Position numbers and translations under genes: made by a program
The notes under the pieces: model-generated
What the model was told of the DNA's origin: nothing
The model's input: only the letters and a program-made list of their open reading frames with translations
Database searches by the model: none
In this document: positions 8,276-56,454 of the stretch, piece by piece
Layout of the letters: the number at the start of each line of letters is the position of its first letter
How positions within the stretch are numbered: position 1 is the first letter of the stretch
DNA from: Nitrosospira lacus
GTDB lineage: Bacteria; Pseudomonadota; Gammaproteobacteria; Burkholderiales; Nitrosomonadaceae
Reading direction: 5' to 3'
NCBI RefSeq assembly: GCF_000355765.4
Contig: NZ_CP021106.3
Span: 434,001-498,000 of the forward strand
DNA: 64,000 nt

Positions 8276-8350
8276 TGGTGGGTCGTAGCGAATCGAACGC
8301 TGGACCTACGGATTAAGAATCCGCTGCCCTACCATCTGAGCTAACGTCCC
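8276..8350 (-). pseudogene. Decayed tRNA-Lys(CUU) copy
   Basis: 75 nt, an obvious duplicate of the intact tRNA-Lys at 20036-20111: the same anticodon loop (CTT) and a CCA end. It has lost one nucleotide in the 3' strand of the T-stem and has an A-A mismatch in the acceptor stem, so it is probably not functional. The duplication goes on into the 5' flank: about 8343-8466 matches about 20103-20231 closely. It marks the left side of the cbb region. Confidence 0.8.
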
Positions 8351-13406: not shown

Positions 13407-13449
13407 AGTCCAGATATCCTCGTATCGAGGGTGGCACGCTCTACAAATA

Positions 13450-13481
13450 ACAAGGGCTTACAATCTCTGTAAGCCCTTGTT
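13450..13481 (-). terminator. Terminator beyond the tRNA-Lys fragment
   Basis: A stem of ACAAGGGCTTAC / GTAAGCCCTTGT lies directly 3' of the tRNA-Lys fragment on the minus strand. It is probably the original chromosomal terminator of the tRNA gene before element 1 inserted. Confidence 0.65.
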
Positions 13482-13485
13482 TTAT

Positions 13486-13531
13486 TGGTGGGTCGTGAGC
13501 GGCTCGAACGCTCGACCTACGGATTAAGAGT
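13486..13531 (-). repeat. Left attachment site of element 1 (tRNA-Lys 3' fragment)
   Basis: 46 bp identical to the 3' part of the intact tRNA-Lys(CUU) at 20036-20081, from the CCA end into the anticodon loop. Identity stops sharply in the anticodon stem. This is the direct repeat left by site-specific integration into a tRNA gene. Confidence 0.9.
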
Positions 13532-20035: not shown

Positions 20036-20111
20036 TGGTGGGTCGTGAGCGGCTCGAACGCTCGACCTACGGATTAAGAGTCCGCTGCTCTACCAACTGA
20101 GCTAACGACCC
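20036..20111 (-). tRNA. tRNA-Lys(CUU)
   Basis: 76 nt cloverleaf including an encoded CCA. Acceptor GGGTCGT/ACGACCC, D-arm GCTC...GAGC, anticodon loop CTCTTAA (anticodon CTT, Lys), T-arm GAGCG TTCGAGC CGCTC. Its 3' part is the insertion target of element 1. Confidence 0.95.
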
Positions 20112-42593: not shown

Positions 42594-44114
42594 ATGCCGC
42601 TTGCTATTCTTTATAGCCGCGCTATCTCGGGCATGGAGTCTCCGCTGGTGACGGTGGAAGCTCACATCGCCAATGGCTTGCCCAGTTTCACCATCGTTGG
42701 ATTACCGGAAGCGGAAGTCAAGGAAAGCAAGGACAGGGTGCGGGCAGCGCTGCAAAACGCGCAATTCGAATTTCCCGCCCGGCGCATTACGATCAACCTC
42801 GCCCCCGCCGATCTGCCCAAGGAAAGCGGGCGCTTCGATCTACCCATTGCGCTCGGCATACTCGCGGCGACGGGTCAAATTCCTTCGAATAAACTTGATC
42901 AGTACGAATGGGCGGGCGAACTCGCCCTCACCGGAGAATTGCGCGCCATACGCGGCGCATTGGCGATGACTTACGGAGCATCGCGTTCGGGCCGCAGTTT
43001 CGTGCTGCCGCAACAAAACGCCGCGGAGGCTGCGCTGGTTGCAGAAGCGACCGTCTATCCCGCCACATCGTTATTGCAGATATGCGCACACCTCGCCGGG
43101 CGCGAGCCGATGCAACGTTATACGGCGGATGACGGGGCAAGCACCGAAGGCAACCCGGAAAGCGGCGGGCCTCAATACCCGGGAATGGAGGAAGTCAAAG
43201 GTCAGGCGTATGCGAAGCGCGCGCTGGAAATTGCAGCGGCGGGAAACCATAGCATGCTGATGGTGGGTCCGCCCGGCACGGGAAAATCCATGCTGGCAGC
43301 ACGTTTTCCAGGCATCCTGCCATCCATGACCGAAGATGAGGCGCTTGAATCCGCCGCGATGCAATCCCTCAGCAGTGGCGGCTTTAACGTTGCCCACTGG
43401 AAACGCCGCCCTTATCGATCCCCGCACCATACCGCCTCGGGCGTCGCCCTGGTGGGCGGTGGCAGCAATCCCCGGCCCGGCGAAATCTCGCTGGCAATGA
43501 ATGGCGTATTGTTTCTCGACGAGCTGCCGGAATTTGACCGCAAGGTGCTGGAAGTCTTGCGTGAACCGCTGGAATCTGGACGTATCACCATATCACGCGC
43601 GGCGCGCCAGGCGGACTTTCCCGCCCGGTTCCAGTTGATCGCGGCGATGAACCCCTGTCCCTGTGGCTACCTCGGGCACTACAGCGGCAAATGCCGCTGT
43701 ACTCCCGACCAGGTGGCGCGCTATCGCGGCAAAATTTCCGGCCCCCTGCTCGATCGCATCGACATACAGATCGAGGTGCCCGCCGCGCCACAGGAAGACC
43801 TGATGCGCCAAGTCCAGAGTGAATCAAGCAGTTCCATCAGGCAGCGGGTCGAGTCAGCCTATCAGCGGCAATTGACGCGCCAGGACAAGGCCAATGCACG
43901 GCTGACGGTAAAGGAGATTGACAAGTACTGTGTGCCGGATACTTTGGGGGAGGATCTGCTCAAACAAGCCATCAGCCGCCTGAATTTTTCGGCGCGGGCT
44001 TATCATCGTGTTCTAAAAGTGGCGCGCACCATCGCCGATCTGGCGGCAAGCGACGGCATAACCAGTACGCATATCGCGGAAGCGGTGCAGTACCGGAGGC
44101 TGGACAGAAGTTAG
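42594..44114 (+). CDS. ComM/YifB-family AAA+ ATPase
   Basis: 506 aa. N-terminal Lon-like non-proteolytic domain (VTVEAHIANGLPSFTIVGLP, VKESKDRVRAAL), then a Mg-chelatase AAA+ core with Walker A MVGPPGTGKSMLAARFPG and Walker B GVLFLDELPEF, a Cys-rich NPCPCGYLGHYSGKC insert and a C-terminal helical domain. ComM is a hexameric helicase that drives branch migration during natural transformation (known). Stand-alone gene, not in an obvious operon with ubiK. Confidence 0.93.
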   Translation: MPLAILYSRAISGMESPLVTVEAHIANGLPSFTIVGLPEAEVKESKDRVRAALQNAQFEFPARRITINLAPADLPKESGRFDLPIALGILAATGQIPSNKLDQYEWAGELALTGELRAIRGALAMTYGASRSGRSFVLPQQNAAEAALVAEATVYPATSLLQICAHLAGREPMQRYTADDGASTEGNPESGGPQYPGMEEVKGQAYAKRALEIAAAGNHSMLMVGPPGTGKSMLAARFPGILPSMTEDEALESAAMQSLSSGGFNVAHWKRRPYRSPHHTASGVALVGGGSNPRPGEISLAMNGVLFLDELPEFDRKVLEVLREPLESGRITISRAARQADFPARFQLIAAMNPCPCGYLGHYSGKCRCTPDQVARYRGKISGPLLDRIDIQIEVPAAPQEDLMRQVQSESSSSIRQRVESAYQRQLTRQDKANARLTVKEIDKYCVPDTLGEDLLKQAISRLNFSARAYHRVLKVARTIADLAASDGITSTHIAEAVQYRRLDRS

Positions 44115-44497: not shown

Positions 44498-45229
44498 ATG
44501 TCTGATGAGCAGAAACCAGAGGATTCTCCAGCACCCGCCCCGGAAATTGATCCACAGGCAGCGGGAGCGCCCCAGCCTCGTGCACTGGCTGCAAACGCCA
44601 GACTGGCCGATCTTACGATCGGCGATCTGAATTCCATTATTGCGGCTGAGACCAACAGAGCCATCGCATCCCGCTTAGGCAATCTGGGTAATATAGGCGC
44701 TGCCGGCAGCCACGTGAATTCCGGACCGCCAGGATTTGTCAACGGCGGCGGCCATGCCAACTTCGACCCGGCCAGAGGCATTGGCAACCGCGTGAATGTC
44801 GGCGATCTCGGCAGGGCGGGTGTCCATGTGAACTCCGGCCCTCCGGGATTCGTCAACGGCGGCGGTCATGCCAATTTCGATCCGGCCAGAGGCATTGGCA
44901 ACCGCGTGAATGCCGGCGACCTTGGCAGGGCGGGCGTTCATGTGAACTCCGGCCCTCCGGGATTCGTCAACGGCGGTGGTCATGCCAATTTCGATCCGGC
45001 CAGAGGCATTGGCAACCGCGTGAATGTCGGCGACCTTGGCAGAGCCGGCTCGCACGTGAATTCCGGCCCTCCGGGATTCGTCAATGGCGGGGGACATGCC
45101 AATTTCGATCCCAGGGTTAACGTGGGCGCCGGTCTCATCAACGTTACCCTGCCGGACGGAGGCCAGGTCGCCATTCCGGCGGCCGGCCCGGTGGATTTGC
45201 ACGTGCGCGGCTTCCACATTACCCGTTAG
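44498..45229 (+). CDS. RiPP precursor with four 38-residue repeats
   Basis: 243 aa. N-terminal about 70 residues form a Pro/Ala-rich acidic leader, with ADLTIGDLNSIIAAETNRAI probably the recognition helix. Then come four tandem units of 114 bp (first His codons at 44711, 44825, 44939, 45053), each HVNSGPPGFVNGGGHANFDP followed by ARGIGNRVNVGDLGRAG; the fourth is cut short and ends in a beta-rich tail. Each unit offers HVN, FVN, HAN and FDP tripeptides. There is no signal peptide. The genes behind it encode a radical SAM/SPASM enzyme and two oxygenase-type enzymes, so this is read as their peptide substrate (inference). Repeats are almost identical at DNA level, a sign of recent expansion. Confidence 0.8.
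   Translation: MSDEQKPEDSPAPAPEIDPQAAGAPQPRALAANARLADLTIGDLNSIIAAETNRAIASRLGNLGNIGAAGSHVNSGPPGFVNGGGHANFDPARGIGNRVNVGDLGRAGVHVNSGPPGFVNGGGHANFDPARGIGNRVNAGDLGRAGVHVNSGPPGFVNGGGHANFDPARGIGNRVNVGDLGRAGSHVNSGPPGFVNGGGHANFDPRVNVGAGLINVTLPDGGQVAIPAAGPVDLHVRGFHITR
44711..45112 (+). repeat. Four 114-bp tandem repeats in the precursor gene
   Basis: Period exactly 114 bp over three full units and a partial fourth; differences are mostly silent or conservative (for example NVG/NAG, GVH/GSH). A CRISPR array is excluded: the units are contiguous and coding. Confidence 0.9.
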
Positions 45230-45260
45230 CCAATCCGGCCGATGAATCATATGCGGGCCC

Positions 45261-46394
45261 ATGTCGACTGACGGCGCGGCCTGGTCAGGCCGCGCCGTCC
45301 GGTCGCTGCGCGCTTTTGTCGAAGCGACTTGCCAAGACGAAAAACTGCGCCAGTTACTGGAAAGCGATCCTGCGACGGCACTGCGCGTGTGGCAGTGGGA
45401 ATCCGATGCCGTGCCGGCATCACTGCCTCCCCCCATGAGCGCAGTGTCGGTCAGTATCGATGACGCGAGCCTGCTGGGTCCGATAGCGTGGCGAACCGAG
45501 CCGGATAAGGCGCTATTGCGGCAAACGCAGCTGCGTCTTTTACTTGCGGGGGCCAAGCCTCTGGCGCTGATCCATGGCAGCGAGCAAAGCCTGACCGCCT
45601 TGGCAACCTGGATGCGGGCGCGCGGTTTCTTCACGCTGCTTGGCCCGCATGAATTCCTGCCGCAACACGATTCATGCAAGGGTGGCTATAGTAATCGCAT
45701 GACCGAGGTAACCGGCGCACATGCCGGTTCTGGTGCATGGCGTGGATTGCTGGTTGCTCCCGACGAACAAACCGTGCTGATGGCCTGGCTATGCCAGCTG
45801 TTTAGATGGGAAAGCTTCCTGGGAAGATTACTCGGTTATCCGTCCTGCTGCTGCAAAGCGTTCGAAGACCGCTGGCCCATCGCCGCCTCAAACCACGAAG
45901 GGGATGTCGGTCTCATGCTCCTGAAGGAATCAGCATCGGAGACGGTACCACAGGTCCATAACTTGAGCTGGACCACAAATATTTTTGCGCGCTATTTTGG
46001 GTGGGAAATTATTCAGCATTTTCCCTGCCAATGGGATTGCCCCGCCACGGCAAATCTGGCCCGGCGCTATTTCGCCGTGCTTGCGCAGTATTGGCCGGCG
46101 GATGCACAGGAGATACTGGAATATCTGGCATCTCCCCTGCTGGTGATCCCCCATCATGGCTACAGCCTTTTTCGCGGCGGACACGTGACGCGCGAGGACA
46201 CTGGCACGAGCTTGATCTATGATCCCGAACGCGTCCAGATTATCGGTATGGACAGCATTTTTACCGATGAAATCGTATCTTCGTCCCGTTTGACGACGGG
46301 TATGAACGGAGGCTGGAAAATTGCCGGCGGCGACGTTCCAGGCCGGCTGCTGGATGTCAGCCTTGATGAAACTGTTAGGAGGATCGCGATATGA
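45261..46394 (+). CDS. Cys-rich DUF483-like protein of the RiPP operon
   Basis: 377 aa. No catalytic domain recognised with certainty. The centre has FLGRLLGYPSCCCKAFEDRW, similar to the 'GYPxCC..AF' block of DUF483-like proteins, and later HFPCQWDCPATANLARRYF, so six cysteines are placed for metal or cluster binding. The C-terminal part is beta-rich (LLVIPHHGYSLFRGGHVT). It follows the precursor by 31 bp and overlaps the radical SAM gene by 4 nt, so it is probably part of the maturation machinery, perhaps in peptide recognition (inference). Confidence 0.6.
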   Translation: MSTDGAAWSGRAVRSLRAFVEATCQDEKLRQLLESDPATALRVWQWESDAVPASLPPPMSAVSVSIDDASLLGPIAWRTEPDKALLRQTQLRLLLAGAKPLALIHGSEQSLTALATWMRARGFFTLLGPHEFLPQHDSCKGGYSNRMTEVTGAHAGSGAWRGLLVAPDEQTVLMAWLCQLFRWESFLGRLLGYPSCCCKAFEDRWPIAASNHEGDVGLMLLKESASETVPQVHNLSWTTNIFARYFGWEIIQHFPCQWDCPATANLARRYFAVLAQYWPADAQEILEYLASPLLVIPHHGYSLFRGGHVTREDTGTSLIYDPERVQIIGMDSIFTDEIVSSSRLTTGMNGGWKIAGGDVPGRLLDVSLDETVRRIAI

Positions 46395-47974
46395 AATATT
46401 TCAGCAGGCCCTACAGGGAAAGCGCCGAAAGTACGTATTTGGCGGAGGCTCACGGCAAGCGCTACGAACCTTTCGGCACAATCAGCTTAAGCGATCAAAC
46501 GGTGCTGGGCACGGGAGGTGTCATCCTGGAGGATATCGCGGGCGAGACGCTTGCCATTCACCCTGAGAATGCGGCGTGGGCATTTCTCAGTGCCGGCGAG
46601 TCAAAATGGTTTCGGCAACTGGAGGGAAAGCCATTTGGCTGGTTACGCCATAATCTATTGCAATACGGTCCGGACAATGCCCTGGACTTTGCCGCCCAAC
46701 TCTATCGGCGCGGTCTGCTGACGCTGAATGGACACGCTGCCGTGGACCGGCGGATGTTCGCGGACGGCCCCAATTACGACGAGGGAAACCTGATTGAGTT
46801 GCTCATCACCGAGAAATGCAATCTTGCCTGTCCCTATTGCCTGGCGGGAGCAAACTCATCCATGCCGGCCATGGATCGGGATATTGCCCGAAAAACTGTG
46901 GATCTTGCATTTGCCATGCGCGAGAGCGACACACTGGCTTTCGAGTTTGCCGGCGGTGAGCCATTCCTCAAATATGAACTCATGAAGGAAACCGTGGCAT
47001 ACATTCGTAATCATCCATTACGAGGCAACCGGAAGCTATTTCTTAGCACGCAAACCAATGCCACCTTACTGAATGAGGAACGGGTCCGCTGGTTGAAGGA
47101 AGAGGATATCCGGGTAGGAATTTCCCTTGATGGAGGCGCACAACAGCAGAATTTGAGCCGCCCCCAGGTCAACGGCAAGGAGTCATTCAGCAAGATTGCC
47201 AAGGGAATCGACCTGCTGCACCGGTTCGAGGTGCCCTTCGGCGGCCTGGTGGTGCTGAACCGGTCCAATGCGGATGACCCGGCGGCCCTGGCGGCCACCA
47301 TGCTTAATCTTGGTATCCATGGCTTCCGGCTGAATCCCGTGGCCTACCTGGGCGATGCGCGCAAGAACTGGAATAAGGTTGGCTTGAGCCAGGATCAGAT
47401 TATTGATTTTGTCAAAGACCTGATGAATCACGTAGTGGCGCAAAAATTGCCATTGCTGGAAGACAACGTCCGTAGCATGTGCGACTTTCTCACCAGCAAA
47501 CAGCGCAGAACGCGCTGCATGCGAACCCACTGCGGGGCGGGGGATACTTTCCAGGCCGTTGCCGCCAATGGCGATATTTATCCCTGCGGCCGCGCCACGC
47601 AATCACCCGGACTCAAGCTGGGAAACATTTTCGATGCCGGCCTGGAGAGCCTGTCACAGCCGTCCCGGCATAATGCCGTCATGCAGCAAATTCGCGAGCG
47701 CCGCCCGGCTGATCTTGAAGGGTGCAGCACCTGCTCCTATCGGCAGCTATGCCAGTCCGGGTGTTCCGCGCAGGCCTGGGAGCGTTACGGCACAGTCCGG
47801 CACCGCACTCCCGAATGCTCCTTTTACAAAACGCTTTACCCCTATTTGATGCACTGGCTGTCCTTCGACGAAATCGCGTTCGATCACCTGAACACCTGTA
47901 ATTATTTCAATAACGAGGGTGAACGCTTTTCGCGCGACTTTGCATCCATAAAATACCAGGCGGTAGCGGTGTGA
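46391..47974 (+). CDS. Radical SAM/SPASM peptide-modifying enzyme
   Basis: 527 aa. An N-terminal RRE-like region of about 130 residues is followed by the radical SAM motif CNLACPYC (Cys143, 147, 150), the EFAGGEPFL SAM site and QTNATLL. The C-terminal SPASM domain has CGAGDTFQAVAANGDIYPCG, CSTCSYRQLCQSGC and a last Cys in PECSFYK, for one or two auxiliary 4Fe-4S clusters. Enzymes of this kind make C-C, C-O or C-S crosslinks or epimerise residues in RiPPs. The His/Phe-x-Asn motifs of the precursor suggest three-residue cyclophanes (inference). It overlaps both neighbours by 4 nt. Confidence 0.88.
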   Translation: MKYFSRPYRESAESTYLAEAHGKRYEPFGTISLSDQTVLGTGGVILEDIAGETLAIHPENAAWAFLSAGESKWFRQLEGKPFGWLRHNLLQYGPDNALDFAAQLYRRGLLTLNGHAAVDRRMFADGPNYDEGNLIELLITEKCNLACPYCLAGANSSMPAMDRDIARKTVDLAFAMRESDTLAFEFAGGEPFLKYELMKETVAYIRNHPLRGNRKLFLSTQTNATLLNEERVRWLKEEDIRVGISLDGGAQQQNLSRPQVNGKESFSKIAKGIDLLHRFEVPFGGLVVLNRSNADDPAALAATMLNLGIHGFRLNPVAYLGDARKNWNKVGLSQDQIIDFVKDLMNHVVAQKLPLLEDNVRSMCDFLTSKQRRTRCMRTHCGAGDTFQAVAANGDIYPCGRATQSPGLKLGNIFDAGLESLSQPSRHNAVMQQIRERRPADLEGCSTCSYRQLCQSGCSAQAWERYGTVRHRTPECSFYKTLYPYLMHWLSFDEIAFDHLNTCNYFNNEGERFSRDFASIKYQAVAV

Positions 47975-49221
47975 AGCTCGATGACGCCGGTCTAAAGGAA
48001 GTACTGCGGGAAGAAGGGCTGCCGAAGCATGTGCTAACGGACTGTGCGGGCCTGTGTTACCCGGCTGAACCCGGCAGAACCGTTGACATATTGTTCGGGT
48101 TGTCCGCGCTGGCCCGTTCAGCACGCTTGCGGAGCCAGATCTATGCGGCGATGGACACAATGGACAAAAAAGAGCACCCGCTCGCGCAGGGTCTTGTCAC
48201 CATTCTTGAAAGCCTGCCTGCCGATAGCCGCGCCCGGCTATTTTCCACCCCCCTGGCAGAAATAGACACCGCCCCGAAGGCGGAACCGGACAACCCCGGC
48301 AATCCCGGCGCAATACAGATATTGTCCGGGGTGCGGCATTTTATTCACCATCCCGACGTACGCAATATCACTTTTATTTTGCCCCCCTGCCTTTTCTCGG
48401 CAGGGCCGCTGTACCTGCCGCACGTCCATGCCATGCTGTCCAATGATGTGCCAGACGTTACGCTGGCTGTGGCGGAAAATGAAGGCAAGACTCATTTCGT
48501 CTGGAGCGATGGATTGAGCCTGACGCTTGTCAATAACGGAAGCGGATTGCCGGCGGGCTTCAGTCATCCCCGCCTCGCGGCCCTGCCTTGGGTTGGGGGA
48601 TTTCCCGTGCTCAACAGGGTTGCTGAAGTTGGCCCCCTGCTATCCTCTTTCGGGCCTGCGACAGATGAAGAGATTGACCTGGGAACCGGGCGTATCGAAG
48701 CAGCGCTGGGACTTCTCAGCCAGATCTGGCCGCTCGCCTTCCATGGCCTCTATCGCCACGTCAAGGCGCTGTGTATTCTAAAACAACGCGGGCACTCGCG
48801 CAGTCATAGCCCGCCGGAGCTGCCGGGAACCATATTTATGAGCGCCGATGACATCGAACGCATTGGCGATTTGCTGTGCCATGAATCGAGCCATATCAGA
48901 ATGAATGTTTTCCGGCTCTACGATGCGATTGCCCGCGCGCGCAATCCAGAGGCGGAAGCCATCGGTTTCGTCTCCCCCTGGCGGCCGGATTTGCGTCCAT
49001 TGCGAGGGCTCGTGGATGGTGTGCATGCTTTTCTCAATGTTTGCCACTATCATCGCCGGCTGGAAATGCGATTTCCCGATGCGTGGGCCTCCTGCGCGAT
49101 TTATGAGCGGCAAAAACGGAACGTGATGCAGGCCGGTATCACACTGCGCGAACATGCTGTGCCGACGCCGATCGGCGCCATGCTGCTGGAAGAATTTGCC
49201 CGGGAGGAGGCCCTGCTATGA
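47971..49221 (+). CDS. HExxH-motif putative peptide beta-hydroxylase
   Basis: 416 aa. Mostly helical with the motif LLCHESSHIRMN (HExxH) at about residue 312 and a likely third ligand further on. This matches the 'HEXXH motif' RiPP-associated family, of which some members are alpha-ketoglutarate-dependent peptide beta-hydroxylases and not proteases (known from recent work; recalled, not searched). LPGTIFMSADDIERIGD lies just before it. Overlaps the radical SAM gene and the 2OG oxygenase gene by 4 nt each. The substrate is probably the precursor repeats (inference). Confidence 0.75.
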   Translation: MKLDDAGLKEVLREEGLPKHVLTDCAGLCYPAEPGRTVDILFGLSALARSARLRSQIYAAMDTMDKKEHPLAQGLVTILESLPADSRARLFSTPLAEIDTAPKAEPDNPGNPGAIQILSGVRHFIHHPDVRNITFILPPCLFSAGPLYLPHVHAMLSNDVPDVTLAVAENEGKTHFVWSDGLSLTLVNNGSGLPAGFSHPRLAALPWVGGFPVLNRVAEVGPLLSSFGPATDEEIDLGTGRIEAALGLLSQIWPLAFHGLYRHVKALCILKQRGHSRSHSPPELPGTIFMSADDIERIGDLLCHESSHIRMNVFRLYDAIARARNPEAEAIGFVSPWRPDLRPLRGLVDGVHAFLNVCHYHRRLEMRFPDAWASCAIYERQKRNVMQAGITLREHAVPTPIGAMLLEEFAREEALL

Positions 49222-49892
49222 ACACTTTCGCTTTGAGCCCGGCAATCGATGCCGGAACGGGTCTGGATATCGACCCCTCGTCGCTTGCCCGGCTCCGTAT
49301 GGAATTCCTTGATCGTGGCGCGGCCGTGCTGGGTCCGCCTGCTCTCGGCCATGATACGCATGCAAATCTTCTGAACGAGGCGCTCGCGCAGCGGCAGAAT
49401 GCAAGCTGGAGCCTGGTTGCAAAGCAATGTCCGGGAGAAATCTCTCAGCACAATCTCCGCGCGCATCTCGGATGGCACGCACGGAGCTTCCTCTCGTCGG
49501 CATCTGTGCTGGCCAGCCTGGAACATGTCACCGGCCATCGGCTTGCTCCATCCTGGAGTGCCAGCTGCTATACCTACTACGATGGTCCCGGCCAGCACAT
49601 GGGCGAGCATTGCGACAAAAAGGAAGCCTGCCGGATTGCCCTGCTGGTCTATCTTCAGACCATCTGGATGCCCGATGTTCAACCGTCGGCGGGACTTCAG
49701 CTGCATGTCTTCCGCGGCGACAACGCAGCAAGCGGCCTATTGCTGCGCATCACCGGGTTGTCGAACCGGATTGTCTTCCTGAACGGCGCCGAGCAGGCGC
49801 ACCTGCGGCCCGCACTGGCTGCAGGGGAACACATGACGATGCTGGCGGGCTGCTACCAATCAGCAACCGGGAGCGACTTCAGGACTACCTGA
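49218..49892 (+). CDS. 2OG-Fe(II) oxygenase
   Basis: 224 aa. Double-stranded beta-helix dioxygenase: YTYYDGPGQHMGEHCDKKEA holds the HxD (His-Cys-Asp) pair, and the distal His is in GAEQAHLRP, with Arg for 2-oxoglutarate. Prolyl-4-hydroxylase-like in layout; the SWSASCYTYYD approach is typical. Precursor units contain PP and NFDP, so hydroxylation of Pro, Asn or Asp is possible (inference). Second oxygenase-type enzyme in the operon. Confidence 0.8.
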   Translation: MNTFALSPAIDAGTGLDIDPSSLARLRMEFLDRGAAVLGPPALGHDTHANLLNEALAQRQNASWSLVAKQCPGEISQHNLRAHLGWHARSFLSSASVLASLEHVTGHRLAPSWSASCYTYYDGPGQHMGEHCDKKEACRIALLVYLQTIWMPDVQPSAGLQLHVFRGDNAASGLLLRITGLSNRIVFLNGAEQAHLRPALAAGEHMTMLAGCYQSATGSDFRTT

Positions 49893-49908
49893 AGACAATC
49901 TGAACGCC

Positions 49909-50505
49909 ATGCAGTGGAATGATTGGCCCCCTGATGATCCGGCGCTTTTGCCAGGCTATGAGGCATGGCGGGGCGGAAAGCTCGGAGATGCCGAGCTGTT
50001 CTTTCGGGAAAGGGCCGGGAAGCAACCGGATTGCGCCGATGTCTGGCGTGGATTAGGCAATGTAGCCTGGTCCCGCCAGGATTTCGCAACCGCCCTTGCT
50101 CATTTCAGTGCGGCATTACGCCTCGCGCCCTGGAATCCGATGCACTGGGGTAACATGGGCCTGGTTCGCCGCGACCTTGGCGAACCGCAAGCCGCGATCT
50201 CGGCCTTCCGCGTGGCGCTCGGCCTCGATCCGGAATATGCGCCGGCGCTCAATGAATGGGCAAATGTCTTGTTCGATGTAGGCCGCTATGCGGAAGCGTT
50301 GCCGCTGTATGATGCCTCGCTGGCGATCGACAATAATCGAGCGGTGGTGCATCACAACAAGGGAGTCTGCCTGCGCTATCTGGGAAGGCTGCCGGAAGCG
50401 GTGCGCTATTTTCGCGCCGCGTTGATGCTGGATCCCGGTTACCGCTATTCGCTGGAAGAGCTGCAACATCTGCAACATCTGGGGAGAGAGATAGATGTCA
50501 AATGA
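49909..50505 (+). CDS. TPR protein
   Basis: 198 aa. At least four tetratricopeptide repeats from residue 35 on (WRGLGNVAWSRQDFATALAH, NMGLVRRDLGEPQAAISAF, NEWANVLFDVGRYAEALPLY, NKGVCLRYLGRLPEAVRYF), ending in a leucine/histidine-rich tail. Likely a protein scaffold. Starts 17 bp after the oxygenase and overlaps the flavin oxidase gene by 11 nt. Confidence 0.8.
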   Translation: MQWNDWPPDDPALLPGYEAWRGGKLGDAELFFRERAGKQPDCADVWRGLGNVAWSRQDFATALAHFSAALRLAPWNPMHWGNMGLVRRDLGEPQAAISAFRVALGLDPEYAPALNEWANVLFDVGRYAEALPLYDASLAIDNNRAVVHHNKGVCLRYLGRLPEAVRYFRAALMLDPGYRYSLEELQHLQHLGREIDVK

Positions 50506-52507
50506 CAAGACCGGCAAGCAGATCGCCGAACCCTATGACGTTGTGATTGTTGGTGGTGGTATTGCGGGCCTGTATTGCTGCCATGAACTGATCAAGCAGC
50601 GTGAATTGCTCAAAATCAACAGTATTCTCCTTCTCGAAGCTTCGAACCGGTTTGGAGGCCGCATAGAAACATGGTCCTTGCTGAGAACTGATGAGAAGAA
50701 TGGAGAAGCCATCGGCTTCGATGATACATGGGATCCCTGTAACTGGGATTTTACCAGCGGAAAACCTGATCCTCTTGAGCCGCATGGCGGCAAGCAATCT
50801 CCCTATCGAGGTCCCACAGAAAGACACTCGATGGAAAAGGATGGCAAGGCTGCCGAGAAATTATCCAGGATTGAATATTTTCGTGCTGAATTCGGGCCCA
50901 TGAGAATAGAGCCGCGTGACCAGCCTTTATTGCACGCATTGCTCGACGAACTGGGAATAAAGGAACAGGCGCCCGGCGAAGAAGAAAGCCTGGACGATTT
51001 AGTACCCTTTTCGTCCTATGCGTCCGAAGATCCCATGGAGCCCCGATTTACCCTTCGCGAAGAAGAGGCCAAGCAAAAAACCCCCTTTGACCTGATGATA
51101 CTGGCCCTCAGGCGTATTTTTGAACTTGTTGATCTCGATAATGCAGAAACGCCGTGGAAGACCAGCGCCGCCAATGAACAGTGGAGAAATTTAACGGAAG
51201 AAGCCTTCTTTTATCGCCATTACTGGAAAGGGGAGTTGCTCGAATGGATCCAGAATATTACTGACGAAGATCTGGAAGTCATCAGAAAAACCGCGAGTTT
51301 CAGAGGCCAGCCGCTGTGGAATCTGGGTTTCTGGAATGTCCTCAGCGATGTGTTAAGCCATTACGCCGTGGTCAAGATAAGGGACTGGGGGAGTTATTAC
51401 CACTTTGTACATGAAAACTTGAATGCCGCGGAATGGATTATTTTCTGGCTTAGAGCGATTCGAAGCACCGGATCGCTGCGCGGCATTCGCGGGGGAATGA
51501 GCCGGATTATCTGGAAGCTCCTGGAAAGGCTTTATGAAGAAGGAAAAAATAATCCTTCGTTGTGTATTCAGAAAGGCAGAAAAGTATTGGGCCTTCAGTC
51601 GGATGGTGATGAAGTGAATCTCATCATCGAAAACGAGAAAGATGTGATCAAGGCGCGGAGAGTGATTCTTGCCTTGCCCAAGCGTCCGCTTGAAAAAATA
51701 TCATGGAATGGAGGCCCGCCCCACGGAATGCTCAAGGCGGCGCTGAACGCCGTCACCTGCCTCCCCCTGTTAAAGTGCTTCTTCGTGATTGAAAAACCCT
51801 GGTGGGAAGACAACAGGCCTCTTAATCGCAGTGCCGCGGATATTCCCACACGAGAATTGCTCTACGTGAAAAGCAGCGATGGGACCAAAGGGCTTATCAT
51901 GGTCTACACAGACCGTCCGGCAATTACGTTCTGGTCCGATTACTTGAGAACAATCGAATGCAATCATGATCAACCCGGTCAAGCGCCGCCGGAGGACCCT
52001 CAACTTGAGAGCCAGGAAATCGCCAAGACCTGGTTCTTGAAGCTGGAAAAAGAACTCTTGCATCCAGATACGCAAGATACGTCTCGATCAATCTATCTTA
52101 GTGACGAAAACCCGATCATTGTAAAAGAGCCGGGCTATCCTCGGTTGTGGCAACGTTTCGTGCAGTTTGCGAGAGACTATGAGCACCATGATTTTACCCA
52201 GGATCGCCTCCTTGCCTGCGGAATGCGCGACTGGGGCAAGAGCCCCTTTGGCGCCGCGGCTCATGGATGGCTGCCAGGGGTGATGTCCTGGAGACATATT
52301 GAGTTCCTTGAGGCATTCTCCTTGAATCAGAATCCCTCGGAAAGAAAGAATATCCATATTTGCGGGGAAGCGTTTTCTGACTACCAGGGTTTCATCGAAG
52401 GTTCGCTTCGATCCACAAGACGTGTTCTACGCAGCATTGAAAAGCAGGCAAAATCCACTACCAGCCCGCCGGATTTGAAGAATCGAAGCGAAAATGCGGC
52501 TGGGTGA
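50495..52507 (+). CDS. FAD-dependent amine oxidase-like protein
   Basis: 670 aa. N-terminal Rossmann site YDVVIVGGGIAGLYCCHEL with the GG-type follow-up SNRFGGRIETW of the monoamine oxidase/phytoene desaturase family; C-terminal FAD block NIHICGEAFSDYQGFIEGSL. Longer than usual (about 450-500 aa), with extra segments at residues 85-230 and 470-560. Members oxidise amines or amino acids; in this operon it may act on a residue of the peptide or a released amine (inference). Codon use is more AT-rich than its upstream neighbours, so it may have joined the cluster separately. Last gene of the operon. Confidence 0.8.
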   Translation: MSNDKTGKQIAEPYDVVIVGGGIAGLYCCHELIKQRELLKINSILLLEASNRFGGRIETWSLLRTDEKNGEAIGFDDTWDPCNWDFTSGKPDPLEPHGGKQSPYRGPTERHSMEKDGKAAEKLSRIEYFRAEFGPMRIEPRDQPLLHALLDELGIKEQAPGEEESLDDLVPFSSYASEDPMEPRFTLREEEAKQKTPFDLMILALRRIFELVDLDNAETPWKTSAANEQWRNLTEEAFFYRHYWKGELLEWIQNITDEDLEVIRKTASFRGQPLWNLGFWNVLSDVLSHYAVVKIRDWGSYYHFVHENLNAAEWIIFWLRAIRSTGSLRGIRGGMSRIIWKLLERLYEEGKNNPSLCIQKGRKVLGLQSDGDEVNLIIENEKDVIKARRVILALPKRPLEKISWNGGPPHGMLKAALNAVTCLPLLKCFFVIEKPWWEDNRPLNRSAADIPTRELLYVKSSDGTKGLIMVYTDRPAITFWSDYLRTIECNHDQPGQAPPEDPQLESQEIAKTWFLKLEKELLHPDTQDTSRSIYLSDENPIIVKEPGYPRLWQRFVQFARDYEHHDFTQDRLLACGMRDWGKSPFGAAAHGWLPGVMSWRHIEFLEAFSLNQNPSERKNIHICGEAFSDYQGFIEGSLRSTRRVLRSIEKQAKSTTSPPDLKNRSENAAG

Positions 52508-52528
52508 GGTAGATTTTGACGATTTTAA

Positions 52529-52547
52529 AGACCAATAGTTGTTCTAT
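52529..52547 (+). other. Hairpin after the RiPP operon
   Basis: CCAATAG - 5 nt - CTATTGG perfect stem just beyond the flavin oxidase stop; no T-run follows, so it is a weak terminator candidate only. Confidence 0.4.
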
Positions 52548-52728
52548 TGGCAGAGAAAGCGGCGAAATATAGGCTGGCTCGATACTTTCATACCCGGCCT
52601 TTGCAGCCGACTTCCTTTAAGTCCGGCGGCTGCTAAGTGGAGCGGCAGCCCTGCCATTCCCTGTGGGGTCAGGGCAAATACCGATGGGGGCATGATAGAA
52701 TCCAGCCTCAATCGTAACCGATCCAGTC

Positions 52729-56454
<3,726 letters not shown>

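What the first reader, a model, noticed from the sequence alone, without database searches (positions are those of the whole stretch)
44498..52507. Candidate undescribed RiPP operon with radical SAM, HExxH and 2OG oxygenase maturases
Seven genes in one direction, most joined by 4-11 nt overlaps: a repeat-containing precursor, a Cys-rich DUF483-like protein, a radical SAM/SPASM enzyme, an HExxH protein, a 2OG-Fe(II) oxygenase, a TPR protein and a flavin amine oxidase. Each domain is visible by motif. The combination of three oxidative enzyme types with a radical SAM enzyme on one repeated substrate is not one I can match to a named RiPP class.
Basis: partly seen in the sequence, partly recalled or inferred. 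Interest (0 to 1): 0.92.

Follow-up and report, generated by a model that had tools for sequence, protein, structure and literature searches.

The report
Four-repeat cyclophane-type RiPP gene cassette
A set of bacterial genes appears to build a chemically modified protein from four copies of one 20-residue unit, and that unit has stayed letter-for-letter identical between distantly related bacteria while the enzymes that modify it have diverged.

Summary
Precursor A plus B (DUF483-like), C (radical SAM/SPASM), D (aKG-HExxH), E (2OG-Fe(II)-like) and F (TPR) form a conserved cassette: 6 of 23 same-genus genomes, one MAG contig with conjugation genes, Paracoccus yeei plasmids, and two genomes of one genus in another class. 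G, the flavin oxidase, is accessory (4 of 10 loci).

The main result is in the precursor. Eight precursors carry exactly four copies of HVNSGPPGFVNGGGHANFDP: 32 of 32 identical in protein, 31 distinct in DNA, all 20 codons varying synonymously. Outside the units 26 of 163 columns are invariant. A ninth, distant precursor (rSAM 46% identical) also has four units, of a variant type that keeps all three aromatic-X-Asn triplets. No precursor has cysteine, so thioether chemistry is excluded.

Best reading: a triceptide-like RiPP in which C forms up to three His/Phe-Asn cyclophanes per unit and D and E hydroxylate. No cross-link has been shown. What is new is this family and its invariant tetrad.

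The parts
44498..45229 (+). A: precursor, 243 aa: 71-aa N-terminal part, four 20-aa units, 38-aa C-terminal part; no Cys
44711..44770 (+). unit 1, HVNSGPPGFVNGGGHANFDP (residues 72-91)
44825..44884 (+). unit 2 (residues 110-129)
44939..44998 (+). unit 3 (residues 148-167)
45053..45112 (+). unit 4 (residues 186-205)
45261..46394 (+). B: DUF483-like protein; invariant CC and HFPCxxxC motifs, possible metal or Fe-S site; function unknown
46391..47974 (+). C: radical SAM/SPASM maturase; CxxxCxxC (C143, C147, C150) and CX12GX4C-CX2CX5CX3C-C invariant in 10 of 10
47971..49221 (+). D: aKG-HExxH-type peptide beta-hydroxylase; HExxH and SPWRxDxRP invariant in 10 of 10
49218..49892 (+). E: 2OG-Fe(II) oxygenase-like; HxD (H131, D133) and H195 invariant in 10 of 10
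49909..50505 (+). F: TPR protein; fused to E in L029 and L031
50495..52507 (+). G: FAD amine/L-amino-acid oxidase family; accessory, 4 of 10 loci

Best explanation
This is a RiPP-type cassette of the triceptide (three-residue cyclophane) style. A carries four invariant units. C, an rSAM/SPASM enzyme, most likely joins the rings of His1, Phe9 and His15 to the beta-carbons of Asn3, Asn11 and Asn17 in each unit, up to 12 rings per chain. D then beta-hydroxylates a residue, as an aKG-HExxH enzyme is reported to do after ring formation. E adds a second oxidation, with F as substrate platform. B is a metal-binding or recognition partner. G is an optional extra oxidation. Shown here: the genes, their co-occurrence and order, the active-site motifs, and the purifying selection on the unit. 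Inferred: every chemical step, their order, and the roles of B, F and G.
For: Precursor and B co-occur in the same 6 of 23 same-genus genomes, and the A-F order holds in P. yeei and G1138. The unit is identical in 32 of 32 copies from 8 precursors, with 31 distinct DNA sequences. Invariant columns: 80 of 80 in units against 26 of 163 outside. All three Asn of the unit have an aromatic residue at -2 (permutation p 0.003, and 0.004 for the L031 unit); outside the units this holds for 3 of 87 Asn in nine precursors. In L031 the middle triplet is HAN instead of FVN, so the aromatic-X-Asn rule is kept while letters change. Precedents: Phe-Asn rings by XncB/OscB, His-Ala by HaaB and His-Arg by YhhB (PMC11002830, passages). 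No Cys in 9 of 9 precursors. D is above the TIGR04267 cut-off, 10 of 10 members match that family, and the ten-row profile finds ChlH in the PDB at 4.6e-8. E-F fusion links E and F.
Against: No modification has been observed. C is far below the cut-off of each named cyclophane-maker family listed (AmcB 95.3/425, GrrM 79.5/310; only 25 of 77 matching families were shown), and its best score is PapB, a thioether enzyme (172.4/340). His-X-Asn rings are not among the examples I read. E is below Pfam cut-offs, and the Arg usual at +10 from the distal His (recalled) is present in only 4 of 10. No transporter or protease is part of the conserved A-F set. Both structure models (B, E) were too poor to use (pLDDT 50.0 and 38.5). 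Three of 15 Asn inside the L031 units are not at +2 of an aromatic.
Confidence: 0.62

Rival explanations
1. It is a RiPP cassette, but C performs other radical chemistry on the units (ether or C-N link, epimerisation, dehydrogenation, backbone change) and the aromatic-X-Asn triplets are conserved for another reason.
For: C passes no curated cut-off among the 25 best of 77 NCBIfam matches; rSAM/SPASM outcomes vary; the best scores are PapB, sulfatase maturase and DynA for C, and PapB, DynA and HxsB for the L031 enzyme.
Against: All three Asn of the unit sit at +2 of His/Phe and this survives the F-to-H change in L031; no Cys, so no thioether.
Confidence: 0.22
2. The four units are excised and give a small, fixed product (cofactor, metallophore or signal), the copies serving only to raise yield. 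(This overlaps with the best explanation: it concerns the fate of the units, not the chemistry.)
For: A completely invariant core over wide enzyme divergence fits a product of fixed structure.
Against: Exactly four copies in 9 of 9 precursors. Linkers of 1 to 24 residues have no cleavage motif that I could see; in L009 two units are one residue apart. No protease in the conserved set.
Confidence: 0.2
3. A is an ordinary Gly/Asn-rich repeat protein whose repeats are kept alike by gene conversion, and the enzymes act on something else.
For: Tandem repeats can homogenise; within-genome copies differ little in L010, L011 and L021 (mean 2.3-3.5 of 60 nt).
Against: 31 of 32 DNA copies are distinct, synonymous change occurs at all 20 codons, no amino-acid change in 8 precursors; A and B co-occur; A is the first gene in 9 of 9 loci where it is held.
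Confidence: 0.06

Closest known systems
Triceptides and 3-CyFE rSAM enzymes (XncB, OscB/GrrM, MscB, YxdB, HaaB, YhhB)
   Same: rSAM/SPASM next to a precursor with aromatic-X-X triplets; Phe-Asn linkage is a documented product (PMC11002830, passages)
   Different: C does not reach the cut-off of AmcB or GrrM/OscB, nor the L031 enzyme that of YhhB; aKG-HExxH, 2OG-type, TPR and DUF483-like partners; invariant four-unit core
ChlB/ChlH, rSAM and aKG-HExxH (Morishita 2024, seen only as cited)
   Same: rSAM plus aKG-HExxH hydroxylase; D shares the SPWRxDLRP region with ChlH
   Different: described as fused there, separate genes here; C matches the ChlB rSAM domain at 58.2 bits over part of its length, less than sulfatase maturases at 87.9; extra E, F, B
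Biphenomycin bpm cluster (PMC12257519, passages)
   Same: rSAM with several iron oxygenases including an aKG-HExxH enzyme; a TPR-containing partner (the arginase) occurs in related clusters
   Different: B12-rSAM and MNIO act on an FRF motif; arginase, JmjC and TldD; no repeat tetrad described in the passages
His-Xaa-Ser (Hxs) system
   Same: rSAM maturase (HxsB 142.6 bits) and, by its name, His-X-X triplets
   Different: below the cut-off of 370; triplets here end in Asn, not Ser; the further Hxs genes are recalled and were not sought
PapB ranthipeptide maturases
   Same: best NCBIfam score of C (172.4 bits)
   Different: cut-off 340 not met; precursors have no Cys

Membership tests
RiPP pathway (general) | gene-encoded precursor genetically linked to maturases | tested here: met
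   precursor and B in the same 6 of 23 genomes; A-F adjacent in 9 of 9 loci where all are held
RiPP pathway (general) | post-translational modification of the precursor | not testable with these tools
   needs expression and mass spectrometry
Triceptide (3-CyFE product) | rSAM with SPASM domain | tested here: met
   PF04055 and PF13186 above cut-off; SPASM Cys invariant in 10 of 10
Triceptide (3-CyFE product) | aromatic-X-X triplets in the core | tested here: met
   three aromatic-X-Asn triplets per unit, 36 of 36 units in nine precursors
Triceptide (3-CyFE product) | rSAM in a named 3-CyFE family by curated cut-off | tested here: not met
   AmcB 95.3/425, GrrM 79.5/310 (25 of 77 matches shown); YhhB 84.1/445 for the L031 enzyme (25 of 65 shown)
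Triceptide (3-CyFE product) | ring carbon to beta-carbon cross-link | not testable with these tools
   needs NMR
aKG-HExxH peptide beta-hydroxylase | TIGR04267 above cut-off and intact HExxH | tested here: met
   77.7 bits, cut-off 40; 10 of 10 members match at E<=0.001; H304, E305, H308 invariant
aKG-HExxH peptide beta-hydroxylase | aKG-dependent hydroxylation | not testable with these tools
   needs assay
2OG-Fe(II) oxygenase (E) | Pfam gathering cut-off | tested here: not met
   17.0 and 16.7 bits, cut-off 27; 6 of 8 members match at E<=0.1, best 0.00038; PADLOC 2OG model E 4.6e-05
2OG-Fe(II) oxygenase (E) | HxD...H iron triad | tested here: met
   H131, D133, H195 invariant in 10 of 10
2OG-Fe(II) oxygenase (E) | double-stranded beta-helix fold | tested here: inconclusive
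   model pLDDT 38.5, not searched
PapB ranthipeptide | curated cut-off and Cys donor in precursor | tested here: not met
   172.4/340; 0 Cys in 9 precursors
His-Xaa-Ser system | HxsB by cut-off | tested here: not met
   142.6/370
DUF483 (B) | Pfam gathering cut-off | tested here: not met
   18.5/25; 8 of 10 members show a match at E<=0.1, best 0.0016

The most novel reading that the evidence does not exclude
The mature product is not four released peptides but one intact chain with exactly four identical, enzymatically built polycyclic modules (up to 12 cyclophanes plus hydroxylations), for example a tetravalent metal- or ligand-binding device with a conserved physiological role, passed between proteobacteria on mobile elements. 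This would be a RiPP working as a built-up protein with a fixed number of modules.
Probability: 0.3. Interest if true: 0.86.

Novelty: new variant of a known kind. Interest (0 to 1): 0.72.

Why it matters
A 20-residue unit held letter-for-letter identical, in exactly four copies, between Nitrosospira-type bacteria and the alphaproteobacterium Paracoccus yeei, whose D enzymes are only about 38% identical, points to a product with a strict structural requirement. If each unit carries three His/Phe-Asn rings, the cassette would be a dense cyclophane-making system with predictable sites, and it would give aKG-HExxH enzymes a simple, repeated and testable substrate. The bioactivities of triceptides are described as not yet elucidated (PMC12257519, passage); strong selection on this product makes it a good case for finding a role. 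The one-unit tryptic peptide gives a direct test.

Tried and rejected
Thioether (sactipeptide/ranthipeptide) chemistry: rejected, no Cys in 9 of 9 precursors. Gene conversion as sole cause of unit identity: rejected, 31 of 32 DNA units distinct. G as a core enzyme: rejected, 4 of 10 loci; the 'NAD(P)-binding protein' near the P. yeei cassette is not a G relative (BLAST E 1.3). Defence system: PADLOC gives only viperin (C, 50.3 bits), 2OG (E) and desaturase (G) matches. Phage link: no precursor match in phages; viral contigs gave 42 loci with rSAM matches at 22-36% identity (best E 3e-19), none of which I opened. Structures: B model pLDDT 50.0 and E model 38.5, too poor, so no fold search was run. 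Host of L021: the record is titled Nitrospira sp.; a 16S search of that genome found none, so its host stays open. Promoter and terminator scans were uninformative. The 8zb2 structure nearest G could not be tied to a paper.

Papers: I saw listings only, unless a passage is cited. Nitrosospira with RiPP: 18 papers, 15 listed, none opened. Two or more of Nitrosospira, radical SAM, precursor peptide: 147 papers, 15 listed, none of these 15 holding 'Nitrosospira'. Paracoccus yeei with radical SAM: 0 papers. Stretches of the core: 0 papers. A mixed list of triceptide, SPASM and genus names: 81 papers, 15 listed. (rSAM with HExxH, cyclophane or triceptide) listed 4, 7 and 9. GrrM or cyclophane: 980 papers, 12 listed, none relevant. 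No title or abstract start listed described this cassette; only open-licence papers are held, so this is weak evidence of absence.

Distribution results against a wide family: B profile in 1 of 398 phylum genomes at E<=0.001, the own one; rSAM profile A2 in 1 of 369 class genomes at E<=1e-80, the own one; A8 in 1 of 374 genomes of family f68 at E<=1e-60; A13 in 0 of 376 of that class at E<=1e-70, with no known positive in the sample.
Full report
What is there. Seven + strand ORFs lie between comM-like (42594-44114) and metH-like (52729-56454) genes (these two names are my reading of the translations). A is a 243-aa protein with no NCBIfam or Pfam match at E<=0.1. B matches DUF483 below cut-off. 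C is a radical SAM/SPASM enzyme, D an aKG-HExxH enzyme above its curated cut-off, E a 2OG-Fe(II)-like protein below cut-off, F a TPR protein and G a flavin amine oxidase. Four of six junctions overlap.

Where else it occurs. In same-genus genomes, B is found in 6 of 23 (the 41-genome search also covered 18 others, with 0 matches), and the precursor in the same 6 of 23. tblastn on the five other loci shows A-F in all five and G in three; the window itself has all seven, so A-F in six of six and G in four. That scan, made with B, gave one further locus, L021, on a contig titled Nitrospira sp. MAG, with A-F but not G and type IV secretion genes beside it. Of 72,556 plasmid records, 824 have some rSAM match; four, all Paracoccus yeei, are at about 65% identity over 98-99% of the query, and the next listed is at 25.7% over 88%. 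I read two of these four: order A-F, no G. A search centred on a genome of another class of the same phylum (probably Alphaproteobacteria, chosen by a 58% match to a P. yeei gene) found the rSAM in 1 of 374 genomes of its family and in 2 of 2 genomes of that genus. There E and F are one gene (L029, L031). In L029 the contig ends before A. In all, B-F are present in 10 of 10 loci, A in 9 of 9 where the stretch reaches, and G in 4 of 10.

Site. L007 shares both neighbours with the window, L010 the comM side, L008 and L009 the metH side; L011, L021, L025, L029 and L031 show neither in the stretches held. The cassette thus sits in several places, and at least once beside conjugation genes.

The unit. 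In eight precursors (window, L007-L011, L021, L025) the sequence HVNSGPPGFVNGGGHANFDP occurs exactly four times each: 32 of 32 identical. The 32 DNA copies are 31 distinct sequences and synonymous variation is seen at every one of the 20 codons. In the eight-row alignment 80 of 80 unit columns are invariant against 26 of 163 others (Fisher p 1e-41; columns are not independent, so this is descriptive). Linkers range from 1 to 24 residues. Over the same span, identity to the window in P. yeei falls to 65% for C, 32% for B, 39% for D and 53% for E. L026, nearly the same as L025, was read but not counted; the other two P. yeei plasmids were not read.

The distant variant. L031 (C 46%, B 30%, D 29% identical) has four units of the type H[AV]NSGPxGHANxxGHANF. 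Position 9 changes from Phe to His and positions 2 and 10 between Val and Ala, but each aromatic-X-Asn triplet stays. In all nine precursors 36 of 36 units hold three such triplets. Of Asn outside the units, 3 of 87 have an aromatic residue at -2 (sum rows, checked). Permuting the unit gives p 0.003 (0.004 for the L031 type). No precursor has Cys. The N-terminus of the L031 precursor looks like a Sec signal peptide by eye (not tested); the window's does not.

Chemistry inferred. Cyclophane-forming rSAM enzymes link an aromatic ring to the beta-carbon of residue i+2; documented pairs include Phe-Asn (XncB/OscB), His-Ala (HaaB) and His-Arg (YhhB) (PMC11002830, passages). aKG-HExxH enzymes hydroxylate Asp, His, Phe, Gln and Pro (PMC13060819, passages), in one system only after the cyclophane is in place (PMC12636437, introduction, citing Morishita 2024, which I could not open). 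This suggests C, then D; E may be a second hydroxylase. C keeps CxxxCxxC and the full SPASM cysteine pattern in 10 of 10, D keeps HExxH and SPWRxDxRP, E keeps HxD...H. The ten-row D profile finds ChlH (8s5f) at 4.6e-8 and an rSAM-annotated chain (22nu) at 1.1e-11. G is nearest to PDB 8zb2/8zf8 'FAD-binding protein' (E 4.9e-92 and 1.5e-91), then L-amino-acid oxidases. B keeps CC and HFPCxxxC motifs in 10 of 10, which could bind a metal or Fe-S cluster; its function is unknown.

Against this. C passes no cut-off among the 25 families shown, no modification has been seen, both structure models failed, E is weakly supported, and there is no transporter or protease in the conserved set. The family looks rare: 1 of 398, 1 of 369, 1 of 374 and 0 of 376 in sampled groups, the first two being the own genome and the last lacking a positive control.

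Judgement. What stands out is the invariant, always four-fold unit with its aromatic-X-Asn triplets. Fixed copy number, and linkers in which I see no shared cleavage motif (in L009 two units are one residue apart), make an intact four-module product plausible but unproven.

Noticed in passing
L021 (contig JAOUHJ010000004.1), 95-5536 and 16447-20716: The cassette on this MAG contig lies between a TcA-like Tc toxin component gene and VirB4/TrbE-, TrbL/VirB6- and T4SS-type genes, so it is probably on a mobile element; the Nitrospira label of the bin may be a mis-binning. Cassette G+C is 48.2% against 55.0% in its flanks.
   Followed up: partly
L025 1-3555 (P. yeei pTT13-1): The cassette sits about 4 kb from quinohemoprotein amine dehydrogenase genes (peaA, peaB, qhpC, peaD), another system with a radical SAM maturase; also in L026. 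I did not annotate the flanks of the other loci in full.
   Followed up: no
window 8276-8350 and 20036-20111: Two tRNA-Lys(CTT) genes; the first scores lower (52.4 against 71 bits). A further stretch at 13449-13531 resembles the L009 tRNA region by blastn but is not called as a tRNA.
   Followed up: partly
window 44675-45679, minus strand: A 334-aa open frame lies antisense to the precursor and the start of B; its translation is repetitive and looks like a by-product of GC-rich repeat codons (antisense stretches also match the precursor weakly in L010, and in the own genome).
   Followed up: no
window 50575-52666 against L007 13809-13836: The close relative L007 (rSAM 96% identical) matches the window up to just past F and again near metH, with gene G missing between: a clean gain or loss of G.
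   Followed up: partly
L011, L021, L025, L029, L031 flanks: No comM or metH relative in the stretches held, unlike L007 (both), L010 (comM) and L008, L009 (metH): the cassette sits at several sites.
   Followed up: partly
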